From a virus, in the IMG/VR virus record IMGVR_UViG_3300048834_000145, positions 1-45,271 of that record: a stretch of 45,271 bases of DNA; one strand, 5' to 3'. This document shows, in pieces, positions 11,619 to 34,798 of this stretch. The number at the start of each line of letters is the position of its first letter. Position 1 is the first letter of the stretch. The position numbers and the translations under genes are program-made. The notes beneath the pieces were generated by a model. It made no database searches, was not told the DNA's origin, and worked only from the letters and a program-made list of their open reading frames with translations.

Positions 11619-12209
11619 CTATTCGTCCGGGAAGTTGAGACGAGCATGATCGCCGTGCAACTCGCGCGCCTTGGCGTCATAGGCGCGCGCCGCAGCCTCC
11701 GCATCCCGAAACAGCCCCAGATGATACGTAGCGCCACGGTAGCCGATATTTGCGACCCATCGTCGCTTGTCGGAGCGATACCGAACGCCTTTGTACCCAG
11801 TCGCGTTCTTGATTGCGGCCTGTCGATTCATCATGTTGCCGTGCTGGGTGGTGACGCGCATGTTCACACGGCGACAGTCCAAGCCGTCGCCGTTGACGTG
11901 ATCCACGATCATCCCCGGATCGGGCTGCATCAGGAAACGATGCAAGCCAACCCATTGACCCTTATCGGTTCGCACCGCGTACCGCAGATCGTTCCTGATC
12001 TCATGGACACGCCAGTTGAGCGCGCCCACTACGGGCGCGTCGGCAGCATCAATGGTTGCGTGAAACCCTTTGGAGAGGGGGACCAGAAACGTTCCGTCGC
12101 CACGATCAATGAGCGGGCGGGGCAAGTTCCGGCACGGTCTGCACGTCTTCGCTCGGCGTGTAATGGGGATTCCGCACGCTGGGCAGGTGCGGGTATACTC
12201 GTTGTGCAT
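11619..12209 (-). CDS. HNH homing endonuclease with AP2 domain
   Basis: This 196-residue protein has an N-terminal zinc-knuckle-like region (CPACG near residue 9 and CRPC near residue 26), an HNH nuclease core around residues 92-130 (HRFLM, VDHVNGDGLDCRR, NMRVTTQHGN) and a C-terminal AP2 DNA-binding domain (GYKGVRYRSDKRRWVA to AYDAKARELHGDHARLNFP). HNH-AP2 proteins are free-standing homing endonucleases. It is inverted relative to the lysis operon, with its own promoter and a strong Shine-Dalgarno (taggagg). Two related genes lie at 20092 and 34157. Its 3-prime end stops four bases from the membrane peptide gene. Confidence 0.9.
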   Translation of the reverse strand: MHNEYTRTCPACGIPITRRAKTCRPCRNLPRPLIDRGDGTFLVPLSKGFHATIDAADAPVVGALNWRVHEIRNDLRYAVRTDKGQWVGLHRFLMQPDPGMIVDHVNGDGLDCRRVNMRVTTQHGNMMNRQAAIKNATGYKGVRYRSDKRRWVANIGYRGATYHLGLFRDAEAAARAYDAKARELHGDHARLNFPDE

Positions 12210-12271
12210 GGAGTCCTCCTAAGACTCTGTGCCAGCCTCGGGGTGAGCCATCACCGCCGGGGCATTTCGCT
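12210..12271 (-). ncRNA. Two-hairpin leader upstream of HNH gene (copy C)
   Basis: Read on the minus strand, the leader has hairpin 1 at 12263-12235 (outer stem GCCCCGG with CCCGAGGC carrying one C-A mismatch, inner stem GGTG with CACC, six-base loop) and hairpin 2 at 12227-12211 (GAGTC with GACTC, seven-base loop holding the Shine-Dalgarno). The start codon follows after one base. The same layout occurs at 34102-34156 and 24330-24390. It may control translation of the nuclease. Confidence 0.6.
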
Positions 12272-12277
12272 GCCCCA

Positions 12278-12286
12278 ATTATACCA
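12278..12286 (-). promoter_or_regulatory. Extended -10 promoter for HNH gene
   Basis: The minus strand reads TGGTATAAT here: a perfect -10 hexamer with the TGn extension. No good -35 is seen, as is usual for extended -10 promoters. Transcription would begin just before hairpin 1 of the leader. Confidence 0.65.
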
Positions 12287-16433: not shown

Positions 16434-16730
16434 ATGCCAGCCCGGAAGGTCTACAAGTACCCGGTGCCCATCGAGGATACGTTCACGCTCACGATGCCGC
16501 TCGGCGCGCAGGTGCTGTGCATGGACATGCAAGGATCGGTCCCGCACATCTGGGCGCTGGTTGACCCGTCGCAGGGTCCGGAGGTGCGACACTTCCGGCT
16601 CGCCGGGACCGGCCACGATATCGAGGGTGCGGTGGAGTACCTCGGGTCATTCCAGATGCACGGTGGCGCTCTCGTCTTTCACCTGTTCGAGGCGGAGCCG
16701 TTTGGCGCTCGCATCATGTACGAGGGCTAG
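16434..16730 (+). CDS. DUF7352-like small phage protein
   Basis: The ATG at 16434 is six bases after ggagg. The 98-residue product shows VYKYPVPIEDTFTLTMPLGA, then IWALVDP, FRLAGTGHDI, YLGSFQ and ALVFHLFE, a pattern I associate with DUF7352 proteins encoded by many phages. Function is unknown. The stop codon interlocks with that of the serine recombinase on the other strand in a shared CTAG. Confidence 0.7.
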   Translation: MPARKVYKYPVPIEDTFTLTMPLGAQVLCMDMQGSVPHIWALVDPSQGPEVRHFRLAGTGHDIEGAVEYLGSFQMHGGALVFHLFEAEPFGARIMYEG

Positions 16731-18175
16731 CCGAACCACGGCGCCAGCGCGTCCCCCACGCGCAGCACCGGGCCGCAGGGCCCACCGACCACCAGACGCG
16801 CGTCCAGCGCCACCATGACCCGCACAAGGCCCGCAGGGGCGTGTCTGGCGAGGCCGGGGATCGCCAGCGTCAGGTCCGCCAGCCGGTCGTGCTGATCGGC
16901 CGCCTCGATCGCCGTGAGCGGGGGCGGCACTGAGGCCAGGTCGGCCCGCACCGTCGCCGTCTCCGCTTTCAACGCGGCATCCCGCGCGGCGTACCGATCG
17001 GCGTCGATCTTCTCCGCGAGGAACAGGTCGAGCAACCGATCCCGCTGCCGGTCGAGGTCGGCCAGCCGCCGCTCGATGCGCTCGCGGACCTTGTGCCGTT
17101 CCCTTGCCGACGCGCCGGCCGTCGCCGCCAATGCCGCCAGCACGGCGTCGGGCTCGAGCAATCGCCCGGCGAGGGCCGACAGTTCCCGCACGATCACCGC
17201 CTCGGCAAGATCGCCGAACAGGGACGCCGGCCGCACCTCGCACCGATCCCCGCGTGTGCCGGTATTCGCCCGGTAGCACCGAAACCGGGGCCGGGAGACC
17301 TCACCTTCGGTCCACGTCGCCAGGTACATGCGCTGCCCGCAGGCGTGCCACACAAACCCCTCGGCCCATGACGGTGCCGCCTTGCGGCGTTGGCTTGCCC
17401 GGCGGTCGATCAGGGATTGCACCGCCGCGAACTCGGCATCGGTGACGATCGCGGGGTGCGCATCCCGCGCCACGATCTCCCCGCCGAACGGGACGTGCCC
17501 GGCGTACACCGGATTCCTCAACAACCGCAGGACCGCCGTCTGCGTCCACGGCTTCCCCTTCGCGGTCACCCGGCCGCGCTCGGTGAGCCGGTGCGTGATC
17601 TCCGGCGTGCCATGCCCGGCCAGTGCCCAGTCCCAGACCTCGCGTACCAGCGGCGCGGTCTCGTCATCGAGCACCAGGCACTTCGCTTCGATCCGGTAGC
17701 CCCATGGCGCGTAGCCGTGATGGTGCCCCCGGCGTGCCCGCGCGGCGAACGTCGAGCGCAACCAGTCGCTTTGATCGCGGCGATAGTTCTCATTCACGGC
17801 GCCGAGAATCTGCCGCACCATCGGCGAGGTGCTGACGTGCGGTTCGGTGACGGACACCAGATCCCCGCCCGCCTCGGCAATCTCCGAGACCACGGCTTCC
17901 TGCATCATCAGGTCGCGGGCGAATCGTGAGAGTTTGTACAAGATCACGCAGGACGCACTGCCGTTGCGGATCGTGTCCAGCATCGCGTCAAACCCTGGAC
18001 GGTGCCGACGCCAGCCCTTTTGATCCGGGTCCGTGAACGTGCCGACCACCGTACCGCCTCGTGACGCGGCGAACTCCCGGCACGCCTTGACCTGCATCTC
18101 GATCGACAAACTGTCATCGGGGAATCTCGACAACGATTGCCGGGCATAAATCACGAACCGGGGCCGGTCACTCAT
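16727..18175 (-). CDS. Large serine recombinase (integrase)
   Basis: The 482-residue product has an N-terminal resolvase domain with the catalytic Ser in YARQSLSR (S14), SIEMQ, the GFDAMLD segment and LYKLSRFARD. The central recombinase domain includes GHHHGYAPWGYR and RLLRNPVYAGHVPFGG. A zinc-ribbon-like region follows (ACGQRMYL, FRCYRAN, DRCEVRP). A coiled coil lies near residues 360-410 (RERIERRLADLDRQRDRL), and a C-terminal segment completes it. This is the layout of phage large serine integrases that recombine attP and attB. It is coupled by ATGA to the repressor gene upstream. No attP core could be identified. Confidence 0.92.
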   Translation of the reverse strand: MSDRPRFVIYARQSLSRFPDDSLSIEMQVKACREFAASRGGTVVGTFTDPDQKGWRRHRPGFDAMLDTIRNGSASCVILYKLSRFARDLMMQEAVVSEIAEAGGDLVSVTEPHVSTSPMVRQILGAVNENYRRDQSDWLRSTFAARARRGHHHGYAPWGYRIEAKCLVLDDETAPLVREVWDWALAGHGTPEITHRLTERGRVTAKGKPWTQTAVLRLLRNPVYAGHVPFGGEIVARDAHPAIVTDAEFAAVQSLIDRRASQRRKAAPSWAEGFVWHACGQRMYLATWTEGEVSRPRFRCYRANTGTRGDRCEVRPASLFGDLAEAVIVRELSALAGRLLEPDAVLAALAATAGASARERHKVRERIERRLADLDRQRDRLLDLFLAEKIDADRYAARDAALKAETATVRADLASVPPPLTAIEAADQHDRLADLTLAIPGLARHAPAGLVRVMVALDARLVVGGPCGPVLRVGDALAPWFG

Positions 18176-20039: not shown

Positions 20040-20045
20040 ACGGAA

Positions 20046-20071
20046 CCGCCTCGTGTGCGACCACGAGACGG
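20046..20071 (+). promoter_or_regulatory. Hairpin upstream of third HNH gene
   Basis: A ten-position stem (CCGCCTCGTG with CACGAGACGG) has one C-A mismatch at the fourth position and a six-base loop. The mismatch recalls hairpin 1 of the other HNH leaders, but no TATAAT box or second hairpin accompanies it. Confidence 0.45.
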
Positions 20072-20091
20072 CTCAATAGGAGACATCGGTT

Positions 20092-20661
20092 GTGACACCT
20101 TCCAGAAACTATACAACAACCCCGAACCGATACGTACGTCGTCCCGACGGTGCTATCGAGATGCACCTAACACAAGGCCGAGTTGCCGTCATTGATGCGG
20201 AGGATCTGGCGACGGTGATTCTATTTCGGTGGTGCGCCCAACGAAGCGACTCCAACCCGAGCAAGTCGTATGTCTGGGCGTACGAGTCCGGCGTCGGTCG
20301 AGGCAGGAAACGAGTGAACCTCCACAGGCTCCTAGTGAACGCCGACCCGGGAGTCGATGTCGATCACATCGACGATGACCCGCTGAACAACCGTCGATCC
20401 AATCTCAGGATCGCGTCCCGTTTCCAGAATCTCGGCAATACCAGGAGACGGGCGGACAACACGTCAGGGTTCAAGGGAGTGAGTTGGAGTAATCGGTTCC
20501 GCTACTGGGTGGCATCCATCGGTTATGCGGGGGCAAAACGGCATCTCGGGTGTTACCCAACCGCCGAGCAGGCTGCACATGCGTATGACGAGGCAGCCCG
20601 TGAAATGTTCGGTGAGTTCGCGCGGGTGAACTTCCCGCAGGAAGGCGAGTTGGCAGCATGA
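20092..20661 (+). CDS. HNH homing endonuclease with AP2 domain
   Basis: GTG start at 20092, preceded by aggag. The 189-residue product lacks the N-terminal cysteines of the 11.6-kb relative. The HNH core includes VNLHRLLVNADP, VDVDHIDDDPLNNRRSNLR and NLGNTRRR; the AP2 domain runs from TSGFKGVSWSNRFRYWVA to AAREMFGEFARVNFP. Homing endonucleases of this class insert into phage genomes and copy themselves. The final LAA overlaps the next gene by ATGA, so the insertion is fully built into the early operon. Confidence 0.9.
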   Translation: MTPSRNYTTTPNRYVRRPDGAIEMHLTQGRVAVIDAEDLATVILFRWCAQRSDSNPSKSYVWAYESGVGRGRKRVNLHRLLVNADPGVDVDHIDDDPLNNRRSNLRIASRFQNLGNTRRRADNTSGFKGVSWSNRFRYWVASIGYAGAKRHLGCYPTAEQAAHAYDEAAREMFGEFARVNFPQEGELAA

Positions 20662-34074: not shown

Positions 34075-34083
34075 TGGTATAAT
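34075..34083 (+). promoter_or_regulatory. Extended -10 promoter for HNH gene
   Basis: TGGTATAAT at 34075-34083 is the same nonamer as before the minus-strand HNH gene at 12.2 kb. No clear -35. It gives the nuclease its own transcript inside the late operon. Confidence 0.65.
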
Positions 34084-34089
34084 GGAGGT

Positions 34090-34156
34090 CTACAACAGAG
34101 CGGCCCCGGCGATGTTTGCACCATCCCGAGGCCAGACACCGAAGGGACTAGCTTCG
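34090..34156 (+). ncRNA. Two-hairpin leader upstream of HNH gene (copy A)
   Basis: Hairpin 1 (34102-34133) has outer stem GGCCCCGG with CCGAGGCC carrying one C-A mismatch, a bulged C, inner stem GATG with CATC and the seven-base loop TTTGCAC. Hairpin 2 (34140-34156) has CGAAG with CTTCG and loop GGACTAG; the ATG follows directly. Copies with changed stems but the same form lie at 12210-12271 and 24320-24390. Confidence 0.65.
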
Positions 34157-34798
34157 ATGCCGAACCATGATACCCCAGACTGCCAATGCGGCTGCGGCTA
34201 CCCCACTCGAATCAATCGCCGCACGCGCAAGCCGAACCGATTCATTCACGGACACAGAGCGCGGCTCCAGCAGACAACGCCGAATCTCACTCGCACCCTG
34301 CCCGATGGCACGATCGCAGTGCAGCTCAGTCGCGGCTGCGAAACAGTCATCGACGCCAAGGATTACCAACTCATCGCACCGTACCGCTGGTATGCATTCT
34401 CGTCTCGCGCCAATACCTACGCGGCGCACAAGTCGACGGGTTGCCCCACGATCCTGATGCATCGCTTAATTGTCGGTGCTACCGATGGCGAGATGGTCGA
34501 CCACGAGGATGGAGATACCCTCAACAATCGACGCGCCAACCTCCGCCCCTGTGACAACCGCAGGAACCAGCAGAATCGCAAGCTGAGCAGTGACAACACG
34601 AGCGGGTACAAGGGCGTGTCGTGGCACATTCGTGACAAGTTCTGGCGCGCAAATATCCGCGCAGATGGAAGGCAGATATTTCTCGGATCATTCAACACAC
34701 CGGAGGAAGCCGCACGAGCGTATGATGCCGCTGCCCGCACGTATTTCGGTGAGTTCGCCCGCCTGAACTTCCCCGACGAAGGAGAACGTGCAGCATGA
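34157..34798 (+). CDS. HNH homing endonuclease with AP2 domain
   Basis: The 213-residue product has an N-terminal zinc-finger-like part (CQCGCGYPTRINRRTRKPNR then FIHGHR), an HNH core (MHRLIVGATDGEMVDHEDGD, TLNNRRANLRPCDNRRNQQN) and a C-terminal AP2 domain (TSGYKGVSWHIRDKFWRANI to AARTYFGEFARLNFP). It interrupts the head genes between MuF and a small gene, with its own promoter and structured leader. The last codons overlap the next gene by ATGA. It is the closest relative of the gene at 20092 by its AP2 end. Confidence 0.9.
   Translation: MPNHDTPDCQCGCGYPTRINRRTRKPNRFIHGHRARLQQTTPNLTRTLPDGTIAVQLSRGCETVIDAKDYQLIAPYRWYAFSSRANTYAAHKSTGCPTILMHRLIVGATDGEMVDHEDGDTLNNRRANLRPCDNRRNQQNRKLSSDNTSGYKGVSWHIRDKFWRANIRADGRQIFLGSFNTPEEAARAYDAAARTYFGEFARLNFPDEGERAA

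What the first reader, a model, noticed from the sequence alone, without database searches (positions are those of the whole stretch)
12210..12286. Repeated two-hairpin leader RNA with extended -10 promoter before HNH genes
The minus-strand HNH gene at 12209 and the plus-strand HNH gene at 34157 share one upstream plan: TGGTATAAT, then hairpin 1 with a C-A mismatch and an inner stem, then hairpin 2 with a five-base stem and seven-base loop, then the ATG within one base. Inner stems differ but still pair (GGTG/CACC here, GATG/CATC at 34111-34125), as do hairpin 2 stems (GAGTC/GACTC here, CGAAG/CTTCG there). Such covariation points to a selected RNA. In this copy the Shine-Dalgarno is inside hairpin 2, so folding could shut off translation. 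It may be an autonomous expression cassette that travels with HNH-AP2 homing genes.
Basis: partly seen in the sequence, partly recalled or inferred. Interest (0 to 1): 0.85.

Follow-up and report, generated by a model that had tools for sequence, protein, structure and literature searches.

The report
Antisense RNA bridling homing-endonuclease genes
Many phage "cut-and-spread" nuclease genes carry at their start a small built-in gene for an RNA running the opposite way, which probably blocks their translation; this RNA family is not in Rfam and appears to be shared by unrelated kinds of mobile-DNA enzymes.

Summary
The two leaders are real and belong to a large family: well over 100 homologues in IMG/VR contigs, Actinomycetota genomes and a cultured phage (Arthrobacter phage Pitbull, before an annotated HNH gene). 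Base pairs covary strongly (0 of 500 shuffles reach the observed score). The conserved fold is on the ANTISENSE strand: 64 A·C and 0 G·T mismatches on the sense strand (G·U pairs on the antisense), and antisense folds are more stable in 75 of 80 members. A conserved reverse extended -10 lies inside codons 4-6, with its predicted start at a conserved G opposite the base after ATG. Hairpin 1 is followed by a U-rich stretch on that strand. Best reading: a ~60-nt antisense RNA, anti-Shine-Dalgarno in its first loop, masks the ribosome site and AUG of an mRNA made from the convergent TGGTATAAT promoter, as IS10 RNA-OUT does. One empty-site comparison shows promoter, RNA gene and ORF inserted as a unit. 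Downstream proteins are mainly HNH nucleases (49/99 against 1/88 controls), also GIY-YIG, LAGLIDADG, PD-(D/E)XK, Vsr-like, integrases, Cas1-like and some secreted proteins. Not in Rfam. No transcript data exist; repression is inferred.

The parts
12278..12286 (-). copy 1 sense extended -10 promoter TGGTATAAT; mRNA start predicted at A12271
   Evidence: in 50/80 family members a strong extended -10 lies upstream, against 11.5 in shuffles, most often ending 14 nt before hairpin 1
   Evidence: covariation
12211..12227 (+). copy 1 hairpin 2 core; on the antisense strand the loop is CUCCUAA, complementary to the Shine-Dalgarno
12206..12268 (+). predicted antisense RNA of copy 1 (start G12206; 3' end approximate)
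   Evidence: MFE -36.2, z -4.97 against sense -27.2, z -2.63
12194..12199 (+). copy 1 antisense -10 TATACT (preceded by GG), 6 nt before G12206
   Evidence: sequence; motif enriched p=1e-24 in family against control genes
11619..12209 (-). copy 1 HNH_3 + AP2 homing endonuclease gene, 196 aa
34075..34083 (+). copy 2 sense extended -10 promoter TGGTATAAT
34103..34132 (-). copy 2 hairpin 1 (antisense 3' hairpin)
34140..34156 (-). copy 2 hairpin 2 core, next to ATG 34157
34098..34160 (-). predicted antisense RNA of copy 2 (start G34160, running left; 3' end approximate)
   Evidence: MFE -32.1, z -3.54 against sense -23.0, z -2.18
34167..34172 (-). copy 2 antisense -10 TATCAT inside codons 4-6
34157..34798 (+). 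copy 2 HNH_3 + AP2 homing endonuclease gene, 213 aa; stop overlaps the next ATG (34795)
20043..20074 (-). divergent relative upstream of the third HNH-AP2 gene: 13-bp hairpin with two sense A·C mismatches (G·U on antisense), U-rich 3' flank on antisense
   Evidence: antisense MFE -29.3 against sense -18.8; not found by model R2
20108..20113 (-). possible antisense -10 TATAGT of the third gene
   Evidence: sequence
20092..20661 (+). third HNH_3 + AP2 gene (GTG start)

Best explanation
The element is a cis-encoded antisense RNA gene overlapping the translation start of a mobile-DNA enzyme gene, packaged with the gene's own promoter. The sense extended -10 promoter starts the mRNA about 8 nt before hairpin 1 in members with the commonest spacing. 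A reverse extended -10 promoter (GnTAnnnT) inside codons 4-6 starts a ~58-65 nt antisense RNA at the G opposite the base after ATG. That RNA folds as 5'-GCAU-stem(loop with CUCC)-GUGY, then a GC-rich bulged hairpin, then a U-rich stretch, and ends near the sense start. By pairing with the mRNA it masks the Shine-Dalgarno and AUG and keeps the nuclease at a low, copy-number-sensitive level. Shown by sequence: structure, its strand, both promoter motifs and their spacing, movement as a unit (one case). Inferred: that both RNAs are made, termination at hairpin 1, pairing, repression, dependence on copy number.
For: Covariation: 16/16 pairs with double changes, score 0.418 against 0.095 shuffled, 0/500. 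Strand: 64 A·C against 0 G·T (p=1e-19), 99.6% of pairs standard on antisense against 95.7% on sense, although the alignment was fitted to the sense strand; antisense more stable in 75/80 and 28/30. The conserved linker GRCAC and ATGC pair on the antisense only: 5' GCAU fully paired in 68/68 against 0/68. Reverse promoter: C+4 85% against 25% in control genes, A+11 with T15A16 54% against 2.8%, p=1e-24, across unrelated proteins; 9 of 11 model hits not used to define it also have it. U-tract: A fraction 0.47 against 0.20, at least 4 A of 8 in 48/80 against 3.9 expected. Sense promoter in 50/80 against 11.5. Empty site: L182 against L317. Known precedents: IS10 RNA-OUT, 69 nt, covering the translation start (PMC5006887); symE/symR, reverse promoter within the gene (PMC3874152).
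Against: No transcript or expression data were available. Neither window copy passes a simple scan for an intrinsic terminator or a -35/-10 promoter. Sense promoter motifs are missing in over a third of members. The sense strand can fold too. Some targets are not mobility enzymes (secreted proteins, XRE regulators). Counts are over related sequences, not independent events, and the outer stem and one mismatch position of the larger set were partly fixed by the search pattern.
Confidence: 0.8

Rival explanations
1. One reading: the hairpins act in the sense mRNA; hairpin 2 folds on itself and hides the Shine-Dalgarno, as for T4 I-TevI, segB and Aeh1 mobE.
For: Shine-Dalgarno lies in or next to hairpin 2; such hairpins are known for T4 homing endonucleases (PMC2988022); the sense strand also folds better than shuffles.
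Against: G·U pairs that a sense RNA would tolerate are rare or absent while A·C mismatches accumulate; it does not explain the conserved C+4, A+11, TA+15 inside unrelated coding regions nor the A-rich stretch before hairpin 1.
Confidence: 0.1
2. The antisense RNA activates: it opens the weak sense 5'-UTR structure and exposes the ribosome site, as proposed for Asr9 of ISPpu9.
For: Asr9 is a stable antisense RNA over a structured transposase 5'-UTR and raises its translation (PMC8450116).
Against: Here the antisense RNA covers the Shine-Dalgarno and AUG themselves, so the duplex should block initiation; the sense hairpins are the weaker partner.
Confidence: 0.06
3. The hairpins act as folded single-stranded DNA, for instance as a recognition end for the mobile unit.
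For: They sit at the 5' edge of the inserted unit; one strand is favoured, as for IS200/IS605-type palindromes (own knowledge).
Against: Two correctly spaced promoter motifs, anti-Shine-Dalgarno in the loop and adjacency to ATG have no place in this model.
Confidence: 0.04

Closest known systems
IS10/Tn10 RNA-OUT and RNA-IN
   Same: Short (69 nt) antisense RNA against a mobility gene, covering the translation start; opposed promoters (PMC5006887)
   Different: One transposase family only; different structure; here two hairpins and many unrelated nucleases, integrases and others
symE/symR and other 5'-overlapping type I toxin-antitoxin antisense RNAs; EcoRI and Eco29kI reverse promoters
   Same: Reverse promoter inside the gene; the symR duplex covers the Shine-Dalgarno (PMC3874152)
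   Different: No homology seen to any Rfam family; targets here are mobile-DNA enzymes of many folds
FinP/traJ (Rfam RF00107)
   Same: Two-hairpin antisense RNA; best weak Rfam hit for copy 1, in the antisense orientation
   Different: Score 14.7 against a cut-off of 45, E=1.6: not a member
ISPpu9 Asr9
   Same: Stable antisense RNA over a structured 5'-UTR of a transposase gene (PMC8450116)
   Different: Reported to raise translation; a single IS family
T4/Aeh1 homing endonuclease leader hairpins (I-TevI, segB, mobE)
   Same: Post-transcriptional control of homing endonucleases at the ribosome site (PMC2988022)
   Different: Sense-strand hairpins of individual genes, no shared antisense RNA described

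Membership tests
Rfam families (release 15) | score at or above a family's gathering cut-off | tested here: not met
   no family reached for the window or for leaders in 22 further loci (only tRNAs found)
FinP (RF00107) | gathering score 45 | tested here: not met
   14.7 bits, E=1.6
cis-antisense RNA controlling translation initiation | structured RNA encoded opposite the target's translation start | tested here: met
cis-antisense RNA controlling translation initiation | own promoter in the target gene, correctly spaced from the start | tested here: met
   motif and spacing by sequence only
cis-antisense RNA controlling translation initiation | RNA is transcribed and represses | not testable with these tools
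   no transcriptome held
IS10 RNA-OUT | IS10 transposase target | tested here: not met
   targets are mostly HNH proteins; no Rfam hit
free-standing homing endonuclease gene (cassette cargo) | HNH, GIY-YIG, LAGLIDADG or similar nuclease inserted between phage genes | tested here: met
   endonuclease activity and homing not tested
type I toxin-antitoxin | small toxic hydrophobic peptide as target | tested here: not met
   targets are mostly 60-750 aa enzymes or secreted proteins

The most novel reading that the evidence does not exclude
A portable, gene-agnostic antisense RNA module that unrelated mobile-DNA enzymes (HNH, GIY-YIG, LAGLIDADG, Vsr-like, PD-(D/E)XK, tyrosine integrases, Cas1-like proteins, perhaps transposases) share as a copy-number governor. 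It would let the enzyme be made when a lone copy enters a cell and shut it off as copies accumulate or where a resident copy already makes the RNA, so the RNA would also act as immunity between like elements.
Probability: 0.45. Interest if true: 0.88.

Novelty: new variant of a known kind. Interest (0 to 1): 0.8.

Why it matters
How free-standing homing endonucleases are kept harmless while able to spread is poorly understood outside T4. A shared antisense RNA gene at their start codons would be a general answer. It would place homing endonucleases beside IS10 in using antisense RNA, link enzymes of different folds through one regulatory module, and it is testable at once in a cultured Arthrobacter phage. 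It also gives a way to find unannotated mobility genes: the RNA marks them.

Tried and rejected
1) First viral pattern CCCCGG-N-CCGAGGCNNGCAC: nearly all chance hits inside genes; dropped. 2) Searching with the whole protein P0002: no relatives confirmed; P0001 gave L122, the first true homologue. 3) Rfam: nothing. 4) HNH-AP2-specific cassette: rejected, since most downstream genes lack AP2 (6/99 match). 5) RNA guide for HNH (HEARO/IscB-like): rejected because LAGLIDADG, GIY-YIG and integrase genes share the RNA. 6) Sense-strand riboswitch or thermometer: disfavoured by strand asymmetry. 7) Host-gene regulon in Conexibacter: 9-10 copies per genome, but copies precede mixed accessory genes and only 14/99 genomes of the class gave a match at the cut-off used. 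8) Literature: six searches found no antisense RNA for homing endonucleases in the held open-access library.

Full report
OBSERVATION. Both copies are as described. TGGTATAAT occurs only at 12278-12286(-) and 34075-34083(+). The stem pairs, C-A mismatch, loop sizes and ATG positions are correct, and a pattern joining both copies is not expected by chance. The downstream genes are HNH_3 + AP2 proteins. A third such gene lies at 20092-20661. The window is a virus record of IMG/VR with phage portal, terminase and Mu-F-like genes.

A FAMILY. The closest protein relative found, L122, has a homologous leader. Pattern ATAATN{45,75}CGAAGGN{4,8}CTTCGATG gave further ones before GIY-YIG and other HNH genes. 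CACCGAAGGRGN{2,5}CTTCGATG gave 28 viral stretches, nearly all true, and 41 in bacterial genomes, of which five were judged true. Model R2 recovers both window copies at E=1.9e-9 and 1e-5 and finds 1-5 copies per viral contig. The element is also in a cultured phage, Arthrobacter phage Pitbull, upstream of an annotated HNH endonuclease with a GTG start, and a similar leader precedes gene 47 of phage Richie. 14 of 99 genomes of Conexibacter's class and 10 of 296 of its phylum gave strict matches; these are lower bounds, since only a few candidates per genome are scored.

STRUCTURE. Hairpin 1: 7-bp outer stem, usually one unpaired base (mostly C) on the sense 5' side, 4-bp inner stem, 6-7-nt loop. 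Then NNGRCAC, then hairpin 2, closing 0-3 nt before ATG. On 15 sequences in good register the covariation score is 0.402 against 0.081 shuffled. On 112 distinct model-aligned sequences it is 0.418 against 0.095, every pair has double changes, and slid controls collapse. In the set not chosen by hairpin 2, a perfect 4-bp stem ending at the start codon occurs in 78% against 40% in recombined controls.

WHICH STRAND. G·U pairs are allowed in RNA and A·C is not, so the strand that folds shows G·U and its complement shows A·C. On the sense strand alignment A3 has 64 A·C and 0 G·T. In strand-neutral fits the counts are 16 to 2 (inner stem), 31 to 4 (hairpin 2) and 17 to 2 (hairpin 1 of the set not selected by hairpin 1). 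Because my third pattern permitted G/A at one outer-stem position, that position is not independent evidence; the inner stem, hairpin 2 and the other set are. The antisense RNA folds better in 75 of 80 (4 the other way) and in 28 of 30. In the window the values are -36.2 and -32.1 kcal/mol (z -4.97, -3.54) against -27.2 and -23.0 (z -2.63, -2.18) on the sense strand. The conserved linker GRCAC and the C after ATG are explained: on the antisense strand GCAU at the 5' end is fully paired in all 68 members tested, on the sense strand AUGC in none.

PROMOTERS AND ENDS. Inside the gene, C+4, A+11, T+15 and A+16 are conserved across unrelated proteins (85, 72, 66, 57% against 25, 27, 16, 25% in 254 control genes of the same contigs); A+11 with T15A16 is 54% against 2.8% (p=1e-24), and with small shifts allowed 62/80 show A...TA. 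Read backwards this is an extended -10, G-N-T-A-N-N-N-T, and seven bases after its last T comes the G opposite C+4: canonical start spacing. Of 11 model hits that did not come from the patterns, 9 have both features, which are not in the model. Upstream, 50/80 have a strong sense extended -10 against 11.5 in shuffles (maximum 18), most often ending 14 nt before hairpin 1, which puts the mRNA start at the often conserved A at -8. The 8 nt beside hairpin 1 are A-rich on the sense strand (0.47 against 0.20), i.e. U-rich after the antisense hairpin; Pitbull and L368 have clear T runs there. The window copies do not pass a simple terminator scan, and no -35-containing promoter is called there, so termination in them is the weakest step.

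MOBILITY AND CARGO. L317 carries the same phage genes as L182 without the cassette. The insert in L182 begins 2 nt after the stop codon of the upstream gene, directly with CA-GGTAGAAT, and ends about at the HNH stop. Sense promoter, antisense RNA gene and ORF thus form one unit; this rests on one clean case. Of 99 downstream proteins 49 match HNH_3, against 1 of 88 control proteins from the same contigs; others match AP2 (6), LAGLIDADG (3), GIY-YIG (2), MTES_1575/DUF559 (2), integrase (4) and beta-helix (3), and one each PD-(D/E)XK and methylase-helicase. In Thermoleophilia genomes the cargo includes four tyrosine integrases, two Cas1-domain proteins and a DDE transposase whose leader lacks C+4. 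A minority are secreted proteins or HTH regulators.

MECHANISM. Convergent promoters would make an mRNA and a ~60-nt antisense RNA overlapping over the whole leader, Shine-Dalgarno and AUG. The antisense RNA shows CUCC in its first loop and has a paired 5' end, as expected of a durable RNA; the mRNA strand is less stably folded. Pairing would block ribosome binding, as for RNA-OUT, where control grows with copy number (PMC5006887). Transcription, pairing and repression are inferences.

KNOWN OR NEW. No Rfam family fits, and six searches of the held open-access library found no antisense RNA for homing endonucleases; subscription papers are not covered. Antisense control of mobile-element genes is a known kind. 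A structured antisense RNA family shared across many unrelated enzyme families, homing endonucleases above all, appears to be a new variant.

Noticed in passing
window 20043-20113: The third HNH-AP2 gene has a divergent hairpin with two sense A·C mismatches and a possible reverse -10, so it may carry a distant form of the same antisense RNA.
   Followed up: partly
L369:1556-2668, L379:1556-2944: Cas1-domain proteins with a zinc-ribbon-like N-terminus in Thermoleophilia genomes carry the same leader and reverse promoter.
   Followed up: partly
L345-L363 (two Conexibacter genomes): Nine to ten leader-like copies per genome, two of them (L351, L359) before short XRE-type regulator genes, some with no clear ORF.
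   Followed up: partly
L243, L249, L261, L294, L316, L339, L343: Some phages use the leader before secreted proteins (beta-helix, metallopeptidase-like), which are not mobility enzymes.
   Followed up: no
L397:1200-1260 (Streptomyces griseorubiginosus plasmid NZ_CP107770.1): A leader-like hairpin with GGCAC and GAGGAG before an ATGC, between two primase genes; no annotated ORF directly behind it.
   Followed up: no
window 16727-18175(-): Large serine recombinase (Resolvase + Recombinase), suggesting a temperate phage.
   Followed up: no
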